From contig JACPPF010000089.1 of NCBI GenBank assembly GCA_016191165.1, forward strand, positions 1 through 64,000: DNA of 64,000 nt, given 5' to 3'. Each line of letters starts with the position of its first letter. Position 1 is the stretch's first letter. The notes under the pieces are model-generated. The model saw nothing but the letters and a program-made list of their open reading frames with translations, did not search any database and was not told where the DNA came from. Origin of the DNA: Planctomycetota bacterium (lineage in GTDB: Bacteria; Planctomycetota; Planctomycetia; Gemmatales; Gemmataceae). Below, piece by piece: positions 17,711 to 26,773 of the stretch. Made by a program: the position numbers and the translations under genes.

Positions 17711-17986
17711 CGCATCATGAAATTGGAAACGAAGCCTGGTCTTCGTTTAGCGCTCGCGTGGCGCCTGGCAAGCGCGCGGCGCCCCAGTCCACCGGAGTTG
17801 AAAATCCTGCAAACCGCCCTCGCGAACCACCACGCCCACTACCGAATGAACCGCGCCGCCGCGCTGAAGCTCATCAGCGCCGGTGAAGCGCCACGCGATC
17901 AAAAACTCGACCCCGCCGAACACGCGGCGTACACGGCGGTGTGCAATTTGATTTTGAATCTGGATGAGGTGATTACGAAGGAGTGA
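17711..17986 (+). pseudogene. Separated C-terminal end of the PSD1 protein after the in-frame TAG
   Basis: In the same frame as the upstream gene, 91 further codons read RIMKLETKPGLRLALAWRLA and end LNLDEVITKE, the standard DUF1553 terminus. The sequence expected at the stop is ARVLAERIMK, so one GAG to TAG change explains the break. The downstream part shows no decay, suggesting a recent mutation, a sequencing error, or readthrough. Its stop TGA overlaps the next start (GTGA), as for an intact coupled gene. Confidence 0.85.
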
Positions 17987-18429
17987 TTGTCTTGCCCAAG
18001 GAACTGAAAGAGGAAACAGACCTGTTGGCCCAGATCGCTGCCAATATGCCCGCGCTGGAAGAGCTACTCGAAAATTGCAACGATCACTGGGGCTACGAGG
18101 ATCCGATCTATCGGTTTTATCACCAGAGTTTCAAGGTTTTCTGGCTCCAGGGCCAAACCGAGAGAATCGTCGCCCAGCTTCAAGCGTTGGCGCCGACTCG
18201 GCCGCTCAATGCGACATTCATAGAGATCATCAAAGCCGGAACCGGAAAGAGCTTCAAGAACGAAGCCAACGCGACATGGACTCAAACCACACGAGCGATC
18301 CTGGAAGCGTTCTTCCATGCCCGGTTCTTTCTGGAGATGGTTTGCCGGTATGGCAAAGACTTGAAGTCGCCGCCCCAGGAGCTTCCAAGCGGCTGGGCGG
18401 CGGTGTTGTATCTGTATGGGTTGCGGTGA
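17983..18429 (+). CDS. Hypothetical protein, mostly helical
   Basis: A 148-residue protein from GTG 17983, which overlaps the PSD1 stop; a TTG at 17992 has better spacing from AGGAG and would give MPKELKEETD. The product looks soluble and alpha-helical (EETDLLAQIAANMPALEELL, TRAILEAFFHARFFLEMVCR) with aromatic-rich stretches (YEDPIYRFYHQSFKVFWLQG). No known motif was recognised. It lies between the PSD1 gene and a DUF1501 remnant, where planctomycete clusters usually have the DUF1501 gene directly, so it may be part of an inserted segment. Confidence 0.65.
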   Translation: MIVLPKELKEETDLLAQIAANMPALEELLENCNDHWGYEDPIYRFYHQSFKVFWLQGQTERIVAQLQALAPTRPLNATFIEIIKAGTGKSFKNEANATWTQTTRAILEAFFHARFFLEMVCRYGKDLKSPPQELPSGWAAVLYLYGLR

Positions 18430-18435
18430 TCGTGG

Positions 18436-18588
18436 ATGCCTGGCGAGCGACCGTGCTATTTAGGCGCCTTGAAGCGGTTTGAATCCCGCCGCTCCTTCCT
18501 CCAGCGCACCGGCGTCGGTCTCGGCGTGGCACGGCGCAATCGGCCTACGCCCCGTGATTGTTCCTCCTCGTCAAATCGGTACGCTTGA
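18436..18588 (+). pseudogene. Remnant of a DUF1501 5' end (Tat motif only)
   Basis: The frame from ATG 18436 reads through [16 protein letters not shown], a DUF1501 twin-arginine start, and then departs from the family and stops at 18588. About 55 bases (18478-18534) match the start of the intact DUF1501 gene (20151-20207) with only a few differences. The similarity ends abruptly inside the minus-strand ATPase gene's 3' flank. It is best read as a displaced or duplicated gene end. Confidence 0.6.
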
Positions 18589-19786
18589 TCATCCCGTGAG
18601 CCAGGCCTTCCATGATAACGAACGGCTGCAAGAGGGGATTGCGGAAGCGGAAGCGATAACGGCGCGGCAGGCCGATGCGCTCCAGCACCGGGCCACGCTC
18701 GGCATTGCAGAAATCCGCGAGGTGGCGCGAGAACGCCGCGATCTCATACGGTTTTTTCATGATGCGGCTCATCGGCGTGCGCACGTCGCCTGCCGCGAAA
18801 TAGCCGAGCTGATCGGCATCGGCCAAGGCGCACGCCAGGAGCGCCTGTTTGTACAGGTTGTCGCTGCGCGGGCTGATGGTCGCCTGATGATACGCGCGCT
18901 GCAAGGTTTGCTGCGCCCCCGCGATGGCTTTGCGGATGGCTCCTTCCACGTGCTTCACGCGTACCGTTTTCTCATTGTTGTCGATGGCCAGACGCGAGGA
19001 ATGCAGACCCAGAAGGTGGGTGTAATGCGGCAGCCCTTGCGAGAGCGTCGCGATGAACCCATTCGCCTCGGCCTGGATGGTCATTCCCAGGGCATGTAGG
19101 CCGTTACGCACGATCTGCACGAGTTCCGCGCGCGACATGCGCGGCATGCGCACTTGCACCAGGGCCCGCTCGACGGATTGATGCTCGGCGATCAACTGTT
19201 CGACAGTGTCAGCCACTCCCACGAGGACGATCGTCGTCGCGGGGGATTGATCGGACAAGGCCTTGATGGTGTCGGTGAAAAGCTGGGTGACTTCCTTGCC
19301 CGCGAGTCGATCGAACTCATCGATGATCGGGATGAACAGGTTCTTGCGCGCCAGGGCATGGGCGATGGTCAAGACGACGTCGGGCGTTATCTCGCCGTCC
19401 AGGTCTTGGCCGAGCGAGGTGACGGTTTTCTTGGCCTCGCCGCGAAAACCGAATGCCGGCGTTTCATCGACCAGGGGGATTTGTTTGAAGATTTTCCTCC
19501 AGATGCTGGCGAAGTCGTCCTTGCCGTCGCAATTGATGTGGGGAGCGATGACATGGGTCTTGCCCTTGGGGGCCAGGAAGGGTTCCAGGACGTTGGCGAG
19601 CGAGGTCTTGCCGACGCCGCGTTCGCCATAGATCAGGACATGCTGGCCTTTTTGGTGGATGGCGTCGATCACGGAGCGGAGCTGGTCGGTGCGACCGGCG
19701 AATACGTCTCGTTCGCGGATCGGCGCCGCCGGGCTGAAGACACCGCCAGCGCGCAGGGCCAATGCTTGCTTCTCGACCGTCTTCAT
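18545..19786 (-). CDS. ORC1/Cdc6-like AAA+ ATPase with C-terminal winged helix
   Basis: A 413-residue protein starting MKTVEKQALALRAGG after GGGGGTGG. Residues about 25-45 (PIRERDVFAGRTDQLRSVID) lead into Walker A GERGVGKTSLAN; Walker B is IPIIDEFDRL; a sensor-like VLVGVADTVEQL and an arginine-containing lid follow. The C-terminal third (LGYFAAGDVRTPMSRIMKKP to FRFRNPLLQPFVIMEGL) has the helix-turn-wing layout of ORC/Cdc6 proteins. In archaea such proteins bind origins; bacterial relatives are mostly of unknown role. It lies opposite to its neighbours, between a DUF1501 remnant and an intact DUF1501 gene. Three promoter-like 68-bp repeats lie upstream. TniB/TnsC-type transposon ATPases are an alternative, but no transposase is present. 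Confidence 0.82.
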   Translation of the reverse strand: MKTVEKQALALRAGGVFSPAAPIRERDVFAGRTDQLRSVIDAIHQKGQHVLIYGERGVGKTSLANVLEPFLAPKGKTHVIAPHINCDGKDDFASIWRKIFKQIPLVDETPAFGFRGEAKKTVTSLGQDLDGEITPDVVLTIAHALARKNLFIPIIDEFDRLAGKEVTQLFTDTIKALSDQSPATTIVLVGVADTVEQLIAEHQSVERALVQVRMPRMSRAELVQIVRNGLHALGMTIQAEANGFIATLSQGLPHYTHLLGLHSSRLAIDNNEKTVRVKHVEGAIRKAIAGAQQTLQRAYHQATISPRSDNLYKQALLACALADADQLGYFAAGDVRTPMSRIMKKPYEIAAFSRHLADFCNAERGPVLERIGLPRRYRFRFRNPLLQPFVIMEGLAHGMIKRTDLTRRNNHGA

Positions 19787-19813
19787 GCGCCACCCCCGCA
19801 CGATGCTATTGCT

Positions 19814-20005
19814 ATCTACAACTGAGTATAAGTAACTGGGCAAAACGCGGCAAGACACGAAGATGTTACGACGGCGTGGTCATCTACAACTGAGTATAAG
19901 TAATACTGCGAACGCTGTCACGCCGCTGCGCGTCGCCGGCCGGGTCCTTATCTTTAACTGAGTATAAGTATAACCGCAAACGCTGTCACGCCGCTGTGGT
20001 GGCCA
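19814..20005. repeat. Three tandem 68-bp units upstream of the ATPase gene
   Basis: Units begin at 19814, 19882 and 19950, an exact 68-bp period. Each contains ACTGAGTATAAGTA; units 2 and 3 also share ACGCTGTCACGCCGCTG, while the matching part of unit 1 has diverged. The spacing and proximity to an ORC-like gene recall replication iterons, but every core also reads as a -10 box toward the ATPase. The stretch 20006-20126 holds no further repeat; only the ribosome site of the DUF1501 gene is seen there. Confidence 0.85.
19825..19853 (-). promoter_or_regulatory. Promoter candidate for the ATPase gene
   Basis: Read on the minus strand: TTGCCG (19853-19848), 17-bp spacer, TATACT (19830-19825), then about 38 bases to the ATG. 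Equivalent boxes (GTGACA, 17 bp, TATACT) lie exactly 68 and 136 bp further upstream. Confidence 0.6.
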
Positions 20006-20126
20006 GAAAAACGGCTTTCAATCCGGTGGGTGAATGATACCATCAACGATGTACGAGTAACTCGCGCCAGGGAGCGAAATCTGTCCGCACCGGCACAAAC
20101 ATCCAGTACAAACCTGAGGCTCACTC

Positions 20127-21587
20127 ATGTTGGTTCCTCCGTTCGAGGTTGGCTTGGAATCCCGCCGCTCCTTCCTCCAGCACACCGGCGTCGGCCTCGG
20201 CGCGGCCGCGCTGGCGTGTCTGTTGAATGACGACGCGGTCGGACAGCCTGACGCGCTCGCCTCCGGCTCGCGGCTAAACGGGTTGCCGCACTTCCCGGCG
20301 ACCGCCAAACGCGTCATCTATCTCCTCCAGTCCGGCGCTCCGTCCCAGCTCGATCTTTTCGACTACAAGCCTCGCCTCGCTTCCATGTTCAACCAGGACC
20401 TTCCCGACTCCGTGCGGCGCGGTCAGCGGCTCACCGGCATGACCGCGACGCAAGATCGCTTTCCGATCGCGCCGTCCAAATATCGCTTCGCCCGGCATGG
20501 TCGATCCGGCGCCTGGATCAGCGAGTTAATGCCGCACCTGTCAACCGTTGCGGACGACCTCTGCTTCATCAAGTCGATGCACACCGAGGCGATTAATCAC
20601 GATCCCGCGATTACGTTTTTCCAGAGCGGCGCGCAACTCGCGGGCCGGCCGAGCATGGGAGCGTGGCTCGCCTATGGCCTGGGGAGCGAGAACCGCGATC
20701 TGCCTGCCTTCGTCGTCATGATCTCGCAAGGGTCCGGCAACCCGGCCGATCAGCCGCTCTACGATCGTCTGTGGGGCAGCGGCTTTTTGCCCTCGCAATA
20801 CCAGGGCGTCAAGTTCCGCTCGACCGGCGATCCGGTGTTATTCCTCAACAACCCCGACGGCGTCGATGCCGCCACGCGCCGCCGTATGTTGGACGACCTT
20901 GGCCGACTGAACCAGATGCGGCTCGAACAATCAGGCGACCCGGAAATCCGCACGCGCATCGCCCAGTACGAGATGGCCTACCGCATGCAAACGTCGGTCC
21001 CCGATCTCATCGACATCTCGCGCGAGCCTCGCCACGTCCTCGACATGTACGGCCCCGAGGTGCGCCGGCCCGGTAGCTACGCGTTCAACTGCCTGCTCGC
21101 GCGCCGGCTCACCGAGCGCGGCGTCCGCTTCGTGCAACTTTTCCACCGCGGCTGGGATCAGCACGTCAACCTGCCCCGCCAGATCGAGGGACAGGCGCGC
21201 GATACCGATCAACCATCGGCAGCGCTCCTCCGCGACCTGAAAAATCGCGGCCTTTTGGACGATACCCTCGTCATCTGGGGCGGCGAGTTTGGCCGCACGG
21301 TCTACTGTCAAGGTACGTTGACCCACGACAATTATGGCCGCGATCATCACCCGCGCTGCTTCACGTTCTGGCTCGCGGGCGGCGGCATCAAGCCGGGCAT
21401 GAGCCACGGGCAAACCGACGACTTCAGCTACAACATCGACGAAAACCCGGTCCACGTCCACGACCTGCACGCCACGATGCTGCACTGCCTGGGTATCGAT
21501 CATCGCCGCCTGACGTATCGCTACCAGGGCCGCAATCATCGGCTGACCGATGTGCATGGGAACGTGGTGCGAGAGGTTTTGCGATGA
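20127..21587 (+). CDS. DUF1501 family protein (PSD1 partner)
   Basis: A 486-residue protein; GAGG lies 7 bases before the ATG. The Tat-type signal [20 protein letters not shown] starts near residue 11, giving export in folded form. Family landmarks are [20 protein letters not shown] near 65, the central [20 protein letters not shown], and near the C-terminus [16 protein letters not shown] and [24 protein letters not shown]1501 proteins have an alkaline phosphatase-like fold and are normally encoded next to PSD1 proteins, as here, though separated by 2.4 kb that includes the ATPase. Its 5' end is duplicated at 18478-18534. Confidence 0.9.
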
Positions 21588-23910: not shown

Positions 23911-24734
23911 ACGAAGAAGCCATCGAATCGATCCTGGCCGACTTTCGCGCCTGGCTACTGGAAGCGCCGGACGTGCCGTCGCTTGAGCCGGTCGAAAGCC
24001 TGGAGGTCGCGACTGTTATTCAGCACTTCATCGCCCTGCGGCAAGAAGTCAACCTGCAAACCAAGGCCGCCCGGGCGCAGCAAGAGCAAAGCTCACAGGC
24101 CGCCATGCAGTTGCAGCAGGCATTGGACGTGATCCAGCGCCGCGAACAGCAAGCCCGCGATTGCGAAAGGAACGCGCAAGACGAACTGGTCCGCCCGTTG
24201 CTCAAGGCGCTGATCGACGCCCACGATGGTCTGTGGCTGGCGGAGCGTGAGGTGGTACGGATGCTAGACAATCCGCCCGATCTGCGCGCGGGCGTCCAAC
24301 CGCTGCCGCCCTCGCCGCACGCGCCGCCGATCATCAAGCTGCGCCTGCCGCATTGGACCCGCTGGATGGGACTGGACGCATCCGTGGAAACGCAGCTCGC
24401 CCCGCTCTTTGCGTGGTATGCGAGCCACGGCGGTGCACCCATCGCGCCCGCGCCGGAAACGGACGAATCGGCCGACCGTCTCAAGGAAATCCTCGAGGCC
24501 CTCCTCGTGGGATACCGCATGAGCTTGCAGCGCTTGCAGCGGGCCATGGATCAACAGGGCCTGGAGACGGTCGCCTGCGTCGGCGAGCCGTTTGATCCAG
24601 AAACGATGGAAGTCGCCGAAGTTGTCCGCGAAGAAGGCCGGGAAAGCACCGAAGTCCTCGACGAGATCCGTCGTGGCTACCTCTGGCGCGGGCGACTGTT
24701 TCGCTACGCCCAGGTCCGAGTAATTAGTGGATAG
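23847..24734 (+). CDS. grpE: Long GrpE-like nucleotide exchange factor
   Basis: A 295-residue protein. The ATG at 23847 has GAGG 7 bases upstream and overlaps the J-like gene by 64 bases; GTG 23907, which overlaps the stop as GTGA, is the alternative. A long helical region (about 50-130, rich in Gln/Glu/Arg) fits the GrpE coiled coil. The C-terminal region has the GrpE head signature: VGEPFDPETMEVAEVV, then IRRGYLWRGRLFRYAQVRV. An insert of about 70 residues (LDNPPDLRAGVQPLPPSPHA to FAWYASHGG) makes it longer than usual GrpE (about 200). GrpE releases ADP from DnaK, and the dnaK gene lies next. Confidence 0.8.
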   Translation: MSDVASAVDLAGPGAVGAEAVNEEAIESILADFRAWLLEAPDVPSLEPVESLEVATVIQHFIALRQEVNLQTKAARAQQEQSSQAAMQLQQALDVIQRREQQARDCERNAQDELVRPLLKALIDAHDGLWLAEREVVRMLDNPPDLRAGVQPLPPSPHAPPIIKLRLPHWTRWMGLDASVETQLAPLFAWYASHGGAPIAPAPETDESADRLKEILEALLVGYRMSLQRLQRAMDQQGLETVACVGEPFDPETMEVAEVVREEGRESTEVLDEIRRGYLWRGRLFRYAQVRVISG

Positions 24735-24916
24735 TGGATAGTGGATAGTGGTTAGTGGACAGTGACCAGTGGATAGGTGTAGGTGTATCGGGTTTAGTTT
24801 ATCGTTATTTGGTGTCTCGCGCTGAGGGCTGAGTAGCGCTCAGAAGCAGTCGCAACGCGGCTTACAATCACTATCCACTATCCACTATCCACTATCCACT
24901 AACCACTAACCACTAT
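24725..24916. repeat. Heptamer tandem repeats in inverted orientation between grpE-like and dnaK
   Basis: About five to six copies of a TAGTGGA-like heptamer run from 24725 to 24775. The reverse-complement array (CACTATCCACTATCCACTA...) runs from about 24868 to 24916. The two can form a long hairpin around a loop of some 95 bases. No gene is seen in the loop. Confidence 0.85.
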
Positions 24917-24952: not shown

Positions 24953-26773
24953 ATGTCCGAACCGATCCTTGGCATTGACCTGGGCACGACCAACAGCGAA
25001 GTCGCGATCATCCAGGACGGCAAGCCGCGGGTTATCGAGGAGGACGGCGACCCGATCCTGCCGTCCTTTGTCGGTCTTTCCGAGGACGGCAAATTGCTCG
25101 TCGGCAAGGCGGCGCGAAACCAGTGGGTCGTCGCACCCGAACGCACCATCCGCTCCATCAAGCGCAAGATGGGCCAGGACGTCAAGGTTACCCTTGGCGA
25201 CCAGGAGTACCGCCCGCAGGAAATCTCCGCCATGATCCTGCGCGGCCTCAAGGATCGGGCGGCCGCTCTCCTCGGGACGACCGTGAAGAAGGCCGTCATC
25301 ACCGTGCCGGCCTACTTCAACGATGATCAGCGCAATGCGACTCGTGAAGCCGGCGAACTCGCGGGGCTCGAAGTCGTCCGCATCCTCAACGAACCCACGG
25401 CTGCCTCGTTGACCTATGACCCCAAGAATACCGAGCTTCATCGCATCCTCGTCTACGATCTCGGCGGCGGCACGTTTGACGTCTCCATCGTTCAGGCTCA
25501 GGAAGGCGTCATCGAGGTCCTTTCCAGCCACGGCGACACGCAGCTTGGCGGCGACGACTTCGACGAACTTCTCTTCAAGCACGTCGTCCTGAAATTCCAG
25601 AGTGAACACGGCATCGACCTGTCCGCCAACGTCGTGTCGCGGGCGCGCGTCCTGCGCGCCGTTGAGAATGCGAAGAAAGAGCTGTCGTATCACCCGTTCG
25701 TGCGCCTGGAGGAGGAATTCATCGCGGAAAAGGACGGCCAGGCGTTGCATCTGCAAATGGAAATCGACCGCAACGACTACGAGGAATTAATCCGCCCGCT
25801 GCTCAATCGCACGATGGATTGCGTGCAGCGCGCCCTGGAAGACGCCAAGCTGGCGCCGTCGTCGCTTGACAAGGTCGTTCTCGTGGGCGGCAGTACGCGC
25901 ACGCCGCTGGTGTCGCGCCTGCTCGAGGAACGCCTGGGGCAGCCGGCGCATCAGGAGGTGAACCCGGATCTGTGTGTCGCGATGGGCGCCGCCATCCAGG
26001 CAGCTCTCATCGCCGGCGATGACGTCGGCGCCGTCCTGGTGGACATCACGCCGCACACGCTGGGCATCCGCTGTCTCGATTACATGCACGGCATCGATTT
26101 CCCATTCCGCTTCGCGCCGATCGTGCGCCGCAACACGCCGCTGCCGACCTCGCGCAGCGAAATGTTCGCCACCGTGGCCGACAGTCAGAAGGAGGTCGAA
26201 ATCGAGGTTTACCAGGGCGAGCATGACGATGTGCGATTTAACCACAAGCTCGGCAACTTTCGCATCACGGGGCTGGCGCAGGTTCCGGCGGGCAATCAAC
26301 TGACGGTGCAATGCGACCTCAACCTCGACGGCATCCTGAAGGTCACCGCCAGGGAGAAAGCGACCGGGCTGCAAAAGAACGTCACCATCGAGAACGCCCT
26401 GTCGCGCTTCGAGGGCGCGGAGATCACCGAGGCCCGCGACCGTCTTGACCGCCTGTGGGAACAGTCGGCGTCACCTGACGCAGCCGACCTGGAAGAGGAA
26501 GGCGAGGAATACGAAAACGACTTCGCCGAGGACGACGACGGCATGCCCGAGCTCGTCCCCGCTCCGCGCGAAGGACAGCGCGAAACCGTACAGGCCCGCG
26601 CACTCCTGGAGAAGGCGGAGCGTTTGCTCGAAAAAGTCCCCCCCGAGGACAAGGTCGAACTGGAGCGTATGCTCAAGGCCGTGCGCAATGCCGTCACCGA
26701 CCGCCAATGGGACGTTGTGACGAAGGCGTGCAATGAATTAAGCGACGTGTTGTTCTATCTTGAGGACGCCTAA
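24953..26773 (+). CDS. dnaK: Hsp70 chaperone (DnaK family)
   Basis: A 606-residue protein with AAGGAG before the ATG. Nucleotide-binding signatures are visible: ILGIDLGTTNSEVAII at 5-20, VITVPAYFNDDQRNATREAG near 120, VYDLGGGTFDVSIVQ near 165 and VVLVGGSTRTPLVSRLLEE near 307. The substrate-binding beta domain is present (TLGIRCLDYMHG; RNTPLPTSRSE; EVYQGEHDDV; LTVQCDLNLDGILKVTAREK). The lid is short, with an acidic run near 515-525, and the tail YLEDA lacks the usual DnaK ending. With the atypical J-like and GrpE-like proteins it forms a dedicated set and is probably not the housekeeping dnaK. Confidence 0.93.
   Translation: MSEPILGIDLGTTNSEVAIIQDGKPRVIEEDGDPILPSFVGLSEDGKLLVGKAARNQWVVAPERTIRSIKRKMGQDVKVTLGDQEYRPQEISAMILRGLKDRAAALLGTTVKKAVITVPAYFNDDQRNATREAGELAGLEVVRILNEPTAASLTYDPKNTELHRILVYDLGGGTFDVSIVQAQEGVIEVLSSHGDTQLGGDDFDELLFKHVVLKFQSEHGIDLSANVVSRARVLRAVENAKKELSYHPFVRLEEEFIAEKDGQALHLQMEIDRNDYEELIRPLLNRTMDCVQRALEDAKLAPSSLDKVVLVGGSTRTPLVSRLLEERLGQPAHQEVNPDLCVAMGAAIQAALIAGDDVGAVLVDITPHTLGIRCLDYMHGIDFPFRFAPIVRRNTPLPTSRSEMFATVADSQKEVEIEVYQGEHDDVRFNHKLGNFRITGLAQVPAGNQLTVQCDLNLDGILKVTAREKATGLQKNVTIENALSRFEGAEITEARDRLDRLWEQSASPDAADLEEEGEEYENDFAEDDDGMPELVPAPREGQRETVQARALLEKAERLLEKVPPEDKVELERMLKAVRNAVTDRQWDVVTKACNELSDVLFYLEDA

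What the first reader, a model, noticed from the sequence alone, without database searches (positions are those of the whole stretch)
19814..20005. Three 68-bp tandem promoter-like units in front of an ORC/Cdc6-like ATPase
The core ACTGAGTATAAGTA recurs at an exact 68-bp period (19814, 19882, 19950). In the direction of the ATPase, each unit gives TATACT with a -35-like hexamer 17 bp upstream (TTGCCG, GTGACA, GTGACA). Three identical promoter arrays in phase are unusual. The alternative is an iteron-type binding array for the ORC-like protein itself, which would make this an autoregulated or origin-like unit. Repeats and spacing are read directly; their role is inferred.
Basis: partly seen in the sequence, partly recalled or inferred. 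Interest (0 to 1): 0.75.

Follow-up and report, generated by a model that had tools for sequence, protein, structure and literature searches.

The report
Triplicated promoter of a solo ORC-like ATPase
In a planctomycete genome, three tandem copies of a 68-bp promoter-like unit sit in front of a stand-alone, horizontally spreading ATPase built like archaeal Orc1/Cdc6, and relatives of that gene in many phyla and in phages carry helically phased repeats of a short ACTTG/ACTTA word at the same place, which suggests that the protein controls its own gene.

Summary
An exact 15-mer recurs at 19820, 19888 and 19956 (period 68). It was not reproduced in 100 shuffles and is found nowhere else in the 7.2-Mb genome. 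Each unit reads as a sigma70-type promoter towards the ATPase gene (18545-19786, minus strand). A 22-bp core covering the -10 is 19-22/22 identical between copies, while the rest of the unit has decayed. A congener keeps a deleted remnant of the ATPase at the same site, with one unit whose -35 and 17-bp spacing are intact. Another congener shows the empty site. The array therefore belongs to the ATPase, not to the neighbouring DUF1501 gene. The ATPase is a solo AAA+ protein with a C-terminal winged helix (model pLDDT 94.9; best PDB matches include Cdc6/Orc1 on DNA), found in about 1-5% of genomes sampled and in phages and plasmids. Best reading: promoter-operator units, probably autoregulatory through the winged helix. 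The origin reading has no positive support. Binding is inferred, and the window's 68-bp spacing is atypical for the family.

The parts
18545..19786 (-). ORC/Cdc6-like AAA+ ATPase with C-terminal winged helix (413 aa, ATG at 19786, includes stop)
   Evidence: Pfam AAA_16/AAA_22/nSTAND1; invariant Walker A/B and shared start in 84 relatives; model pLDDT 94.9 with AAA+ and winged helix; PDB matches Cdc6/Orc1
19801..19868 (-). 68-bp unit 1, nearest the gene: 22-bp core 19814-19835, -10 TATACT 19825-19830, -35-like TTGCCG 19848-19853
19869..19936 (-). 68-bp unit 2: 22-bp core 19882-19903, -10 TATACT 19893-19898, -35-like GTGACA 19916-19921
19937..20004 (-). 68-bp unit 3: 22-bp core 19950-19971 (three differences from copies 1 and 2), -10 TATACT 19961-19966 (a second TATACT starts 6 bp upstream), -35-like GTGACA 19984-19989
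17983..20158 (.). Inserted stretch (148-aa ORF, ATPase and array); absent in congener G001, where window 17982 and 20159 are 36 bp apart
   Evidence: blastn against L218;
18478..18530 (+). 53-bp duplicate (92%) of the 5' coding end of DUF1501, just past the ATPase stop codon; partner at 20154-20206

Best explanation
The array is three tandem sigma70-type promoter-operator units, arisen by repeated tandem duplication of one 68-bp unit, that transcribe a stand-alone, horizontally moving ATPase of Orc1/Cdc6-like architecture. Each unit carries the -35/-10 pair and, overlapping the -10 and the start region, a conserved 22-bp core TTACTTATACTCAGTTGTAGAT that most probably serves as operator. The likeliest ligand is the ATPase itself, through its C-terminal winged helix, giving autoregulation. 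Shown: repeats, promoter match, selective conservation, linkage to the ATPase, winged-helix fold, family-wide phased ACTT(G/A) words upstream. Inferred: transcription, binding, who binds, sign of regulation.
For: Exact 68-bp repetition; promoter-like sites 3 against 0.2 in shuffles. Core 19-22/22 identical between all pairs of units, against 11-24/33 and 4-7/13 for the flanks among the three window copies. The congener G004 keeps GTGACA, 17 bp and TATAGT plus CAGTTGTAGATAA beside a deleted ATPase. Array and ATPase are both absent at the orthologous DUF1501 site in G001, G002, G003, G005 and G006. No second copy of the core in the genome at up to 2 mismatches, so no regulon at that stringency. 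Family-wide: ACTT[GA] words in 150 bp upstream 73 against 26.4 +- 5.4 in shuffles, with spacings 21 (10 against 0.03), 42 (5 against 0.08) and 20 (3 against 0.03); TACTTG 16/85 against 4/256 other upstreams and 0/84 downstream (Fisher 1.4e-7). Structure with 84-row alignment pLDDT 94.9, winged helix at about 310-396; Cdc6/Orc1 on origin DNA among best matches; conserved basic R364, R370, R375, R378, R380 in the wing region. Precedent: archaeal Orc1-2, a non-initiator, binds a hexanucleotide on its own promoter, its wH domain playing the primary role in promoter binding (PMC9738581).
Against: No binding or transcription data. The window's 68-bp spacing (6.5 helical turns) is off the 20/21/42 phasing of relatives, and its link to the family motif rests on a 5-bp word (ACTTA). 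Only 43 of 86 relatives have any ACTT[GA] word upstream (22.5 expected). Covariation of motif with the winged helix is not significant (Mantel r 0.08, p 0.076). The paralog in the same genome lacks the array. Other genes' upstreams show a mild excess at lag 21 too (11.6 of 256, about 5 expected).
Confidence: 0.5

Rival explanations
1. Plain tandem promoters: a promoter unit was duplicated twice and raises expression; the conserved core only reflects RNA-polymerase contacts (extended -10 to start site), with no specific operator.
For: Promoter hexamers with correct spacing in all units; copies 2 and 3 80% alike, consistent with tandem duplication; congener relic keeps exactly -35, spacing and -10.
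Against: The conserved 22-bp core extends well beyond the -10 on both sides, more than sigma70 needs; relatives show phased repeats not explained by promoter hexamers.
Confidence: 0.3
2. Operator array for a different, host- or element-encoded regulator, not the ATPase.
For: The motif varies between relatives and does not covary significantly with the winged helix.
Against: The gene stands alone (15 of 95 have a co-directional downstream neighbour within 60 bp, neighbour strands are random) and is spread over many phyla and phages with the same phased word, so a shared external regulator is unlikely; the core is unique in the genome.
Confidence: 0.12
3. Iteron-type replication origin: the ATPase is an ORC-like initiator and the array its binding site, a relic of a minimal replicon that integrated.
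For: Orc1/Cdc6-like fold; repeats next to the gene; relatives on plasmids and phages; copies flanked by host-sequence direct repeats in three planctomycete loci.
Against: The units are promoters in the right place and orientation for the gene; Orc1/Cdc6 family cut-off not met (32 against 181.3 bits); in the phages the gene lies in the integrase/lysis region and not with replication genes; only 15 of 72,556 plasmid records match at all; genes sit solo in chromosomes.
Confidence: 0.05
4. Transposon end: the repeats are TnsB/TniA-like binding sites and the ATPase a TnsC/TniB relative.
For: TnsC and MuB among structural matches; weak TniB hit; some phage relatives hit a DNA transposition family weakly.
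Against: No matching repeats on the other side of the gene (TACTTG 0/84 downstream); no transposase beside the gene in the window; TniB just below its Pfam cut-off (22.2 against 22.4).
Confidence: 0.03

Closest known systems
Archaeal Orc1-2 (Saccharolobus islandicus), non-initiator Orc1 acting as transcription regulator (PMC9738581)
   Same: AAA+ plus C-terminal winged helix; short non-palindromic site on its own promoter (reported for Orc1-2, proposed here)
   Different: Sequence similarity very low; Orc1-2 is a core archaeal regulator of many DNA-damage genes, whereas here the core is unique in the genome and the gene is accessory and bacterial/phage-borne; binding is unproven here
Archaeal Orc1/Cdc6 replication initiators (PDB 2qby, 2v1u, 1fnn)
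   Same: Overall fold, including winged helix (VIA Z 18-20)
   Different: About 14-18% identity; TIGR02928 cut-off not met; no origin evidence; different genomic setting
Mycobacterium phage Kevin1 gene 30 AAA-ATPase (PHROG 6841, function unknown; PMC6544188)
   Same: Same protein family (43% identity; phrog_6841 E 7.6e-48); solo gene with ACTTGCAG[A/T]AGCCG twice at 42 bp upstream
   Different: Temperate phage, variable central region between integrase and lysis genes; one 42-bp pair instead of three 68-bp units
TniB/TnsC/MuB transposition ATPases
   Same: AAA+ core and structural similarity
   Different: No transposase partner beside the gene, no two-sided end repeats, Pfam TniB below cut-off

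Membership tests
sigma70-type promoter | -35 and -10 hexamers at 16-18 bp | tested here: met
   three sites, 9-10 of 12 matches, 17-bp spacers, 0.2 expected
sigma70-type promoter | transcription starts there | not testable with these tools
   no RNA data
Orc1/Cdc6 replication initiator family | sequence score above family cut-off (TIGR02928) | tested here: not met
   32 bits against cut-off 181.3
Orc1/Cdc6 replication initiator family | AAA+ ATPase followed by winged helix | tested here: met
   model pLDDT 94.9; matches 2qby, 2v1u, 1fnn
Orc1/Cdc6 replication initiator family | binds origin repeats and starts replication | not testable with these tools
   no experiment
PHROG 6841 (phage family of unknown function) | full-length profile match | tested here: met
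   E 7.6e-48, residues 16-404, profile 23-426/470
TniB/TnsC transposition ATPase | TniB Pfam score above gathering cut-off | tested here: not met
   22.2 against 22.4 bits, a narrow miss
TniB/TnsC transposition ATPase | element with transposase and paired end repeats | tested here: not met
   no matching repeats downstream of relatives; no transposase ORF adjoining the ATPase in the window; neighbouring ORFs of relatives not annotated one by one
Iteron replicon | tandem direct repeats next to the initiator gene | tested here: inconclusive
   repeats present but equally explained as operators
Iteron replicon | autonomous replication | not testable with these tools
   no experiment
Autoregulated Orc-like regulator (Orc1-2-like working mode) | protein binds a short site on its own promoter | not testable with these tools
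   indirect only: upstream phased words, winged helix, unique core
Known anti-phage defence families (PADLOC-DB) | strong match to a defence model | tested here: not met
   only weak AAA-level hits, best mad8 E 2.2e-5

The most novel reading that the evidence does not exclude
A widespread, mobile, single-gene bacterial and phage family of Orc1/Cdc6-like ATPases assembles cooperatively on helically phased ACTT(G/A) repeats at its own promoter, i.e. a bacterial counterpart of the archaeal Orc-type regulators, with the planctomycete copy having re-arranged its sites into three promoter-operator units.
Probability: 0.35. Interest if true: 0.7.

Novelty: new variant of a known kind. Interest (0 to 1): 0.5.

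Why it matters
Orc1/Cdc6-like AAA+ plus winged-helix proteins are best known from archaeal and eukaryotic replication. A solo bacterial and phage family with that architecture and conserved, helically phased cis-sites at its own promoter would give a small, testable system for how such ATPases choose DNA and oligomerise on it, and a handle on a phage-borne gene family of unknown function that may be part of prophage-conferred traits.

Tried and rejected
Flanking host-sequence direct repeats as a general mark of a solo mobile element: found in only 3 planctomycete loci (window, L093=G017, L094) among about 100, so not a family feature. Search for the exact core elsewhere: 392 genomes of the phylum gave only scattered single near-matches; 60 single exact 15-mer matches in viral contigs, none with more than one match per stretch, taken as chance. 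Covariation between motif and winged helix: inconclusive. Independent members from three phyla: few close ones; L234 has ACTTG at 21 bp and L233 and L236 score 9/12 at lag 21, while distant members (E weaker than about 1e-62) show no pattern, so the array theme is limited to the nearer family. Defence family assignment: no strong hit. Rfam: no hit in the window. First structure prediction without alignment was poor (pLDDT 37) and was not used. Literature searches found no paper on this family beyond the Kevin1 announcement; subscription journals are not covered.

Full report
Observation. The three repeats are real. AACTGAGTATAAGTA is found without mismatch at 19820, 19888 and 19956; none of 100 dinucleotide shuffles of the window reached three matches, even allowing three mismatches. 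The repeat finder gives three 60-nt copies at spacing 68 and 68. Each unit has a sigma70-like promoter on the minus strand, pointing at the ATPase, with a 17-bp spacer; three were found against 0.2 in shuffles. In the whole 7.23-Mb genome the 15-mer has no further match at up to two mismatches.

Anatomy. Read towards the ATPase, the units align without gaps. A 22-bp core TTACTTATACTCAGTTGTAGAT (window 19814-19835, 19882-19903, 19950-19971) is 22/22 identical between units 1 and 2 and 19/22 to unit 3, whereas the 33 bp before it are 11-24/33 and the 13 bp after it 4-7/13 identical. This fits tandem duplication of a promoter unit, then decay of everything but the functional core. The core holds the -10 (TATACT) and continues to about the expected start site. 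The gene start at 19786 is supported by alignment of 84 relatives.

Linkage to the ATPase. The genus has seven genomes. In G004 the same site next to the DUF1501 gene carries only the last 62 residues of the ATPase (85% identical) joined by a deletion to a single unit. That unit keeps GTGACA, 17 bp, TATAGT, and CAGTTGTAGATAA downstream. In G001 the window positions 17982 and 20159 lie 36 bp apart: the ATPase, the array and a 148-aa ORF are missing together. In G002, G003, G005 and G006 the orthologous DUF1501 gene has neither the core nor the ATPase remnant upstream. The array therefore travels with the ATPase and does not serve DUF1501.

The protein. Pfam gives AAA_16, AAA_22 and nSTAND1; NCBIfam gives Orc1/Cdc6 TIGR02928 at 32 bits against a cut-off of 181.3; PHROGs gives family 6841 of unknown function at 7.6e-48. 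A structure predicted with an 84-row alignment has mean pLDDT 94.9: an AAA+ domain and a C-terminal winged helix (about 310-396). Foldseek and VIA rank archaeal Cdc6/Orc1 structures, two of them bound to DNA, and the archaeal ATPases 2qen and 2fna at the top. Walker A and B residues are invariant, and basic residues R364, R370, R375, R378 and R380 in the wing region are conserved. So the fold is Orc1/Cdc6-like, but family membership by sequence is not met.

Distribution. The family is sporadic: 4 of 396, 7 of 400 and 8 of 398 genomes in three other phyla at E 1e-40 or better and 5 of 95 genomes of the window's own family at E 0.001. It occurs in viral contigs, phages Kevin1 and Cashline and a few plasmids. 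In Kevin1 the gene lies between the integrase region and the lysis genes, in the variable region that its authors link to possible prophage-mediated defence (PMC6544188). It stands alone: neighbour strands are random, and a co-directional downstream neighbour within 60 bp is found in 15 of 95. In the window's genome a second copy (46% identical) sits between genes that look like squalene/hopanoid synthesis genes (identity of those neighbours from reading, not searched).

A family-wide cis-feature. The exact 68-bp array is not shared by relatives, but something related is. In 86 relatives, ACTT[GA] occurs 73 times in the 150 bp upstream against 26.4 +- 5.4 in dinucleotide shuffles, and the same-strand spacings that recur are 21 (10 times against 0.03), 42 (5 against 0.08) and 20 (3 against 0.03). 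An unsupervised lag statistic agrees: lag 21 is best in 17.4 of 85 upstreams and lag 20 in 8.1, with 1.7 expected each; upstreams of 256 other genes in the same loci reach 11.6 at lag 21 (about 5 expected), and the downstream sides show no peak at 21. TACTTG is in 16 of 85 upstreams, 4 of 256 control upstreams and 0 of 84 downstream regions. Examples: L119 (three ACTTG at 21 and 21), L050 (21, 21), L029 (10, 10, 20), Kevin1 (42), L142 plasmid (63). The control upstreams are richer in G+C (0.58 against 0.48), so the shuffle-based figures are the fairer measure. A small fresh sample agrees in part (L234 has ACTTG at 21 bp).

How it probably works. Step 1 (shown): three promoter-like units point at the ATPase. 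Step 2 (shown): the core is under selection. Step 3 (inferred): the core is an operator. Step 4 (inferred): the ATPase binds it by its winged helix. Two-turn spacing in relatives fits an AAA+ protein assembling along one face of DNA. A published precedent for an Orc-type protein acting on its own promoter exists: archaeal Orc1-2 footprints on an ANTTTC hexanucleotide in its own promoter, its wH domain plays the primary role in promoter binding, and binding is strong in the ATP-bound form (PMC9738581). The window's units are 68 bp apart, 6.5 helical turns, so they are not phased as in relatives; each unit is better seen as its own promoter with its own site. The covariation test between motif and winged helix was inconclusive.

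Alternatives. Plain tandem promoters remain possible. An origin is unlikely: the phage and chromosome settings are not those of replication genes, and the cut-off for initiators is not met. Transposon ends are unlikely because the repeats are one-sided and no transposase adjoins the gene in the window.

Verdict. The new element is the family-wide phased motif upstream of a solo Orc-like ATPase, which makes the autoregulation idea directly testable.

Noticed in passing
window 18478-18530 and 20154-20206; L006 1348-1457 and 2808-2917 (same locus as L093); L094: Three planctomycete copies of the ATPase gene are flanked by direct repeats of 46-110 bp; in the window and L006 they duplicate an end of the neighbouring host gene. 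It may reflect how the gene was inserted, but it is absent in about 100 other loci.
   Followed up: partly
window 17983-20158; L215, L216, L217, L218: The stretch upstream of this DUF1501 gene holds different sequence in each congener (empty in G001), so it looks like an insertion hotspot.
   Followed up: partly
window 24725-24776 and 24869-24916: Two heptamer arrays (TAGTGGA x7, CACTATC x7), roughly inverted to each other, stand just upstream of an Hsp70-like gene starting at 24953.
   Followed up: no
L008 (G000:C4): A second, 46% identical copy of the ATPase in the same genome lies between genes that look like squalene/hopanoid synthesis genes; its upstream has TAAGTCACTTG, an inverted pair, near the start codon.
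   Followed up: partly
L101 upstream of the ATPase: Some relatives have a different 20-21 bp repeated word (for example ATTAGATGAAC twice, plus an inverted copy), so the spacing may be kept while the word drifts by clade.
   Followed up: partly
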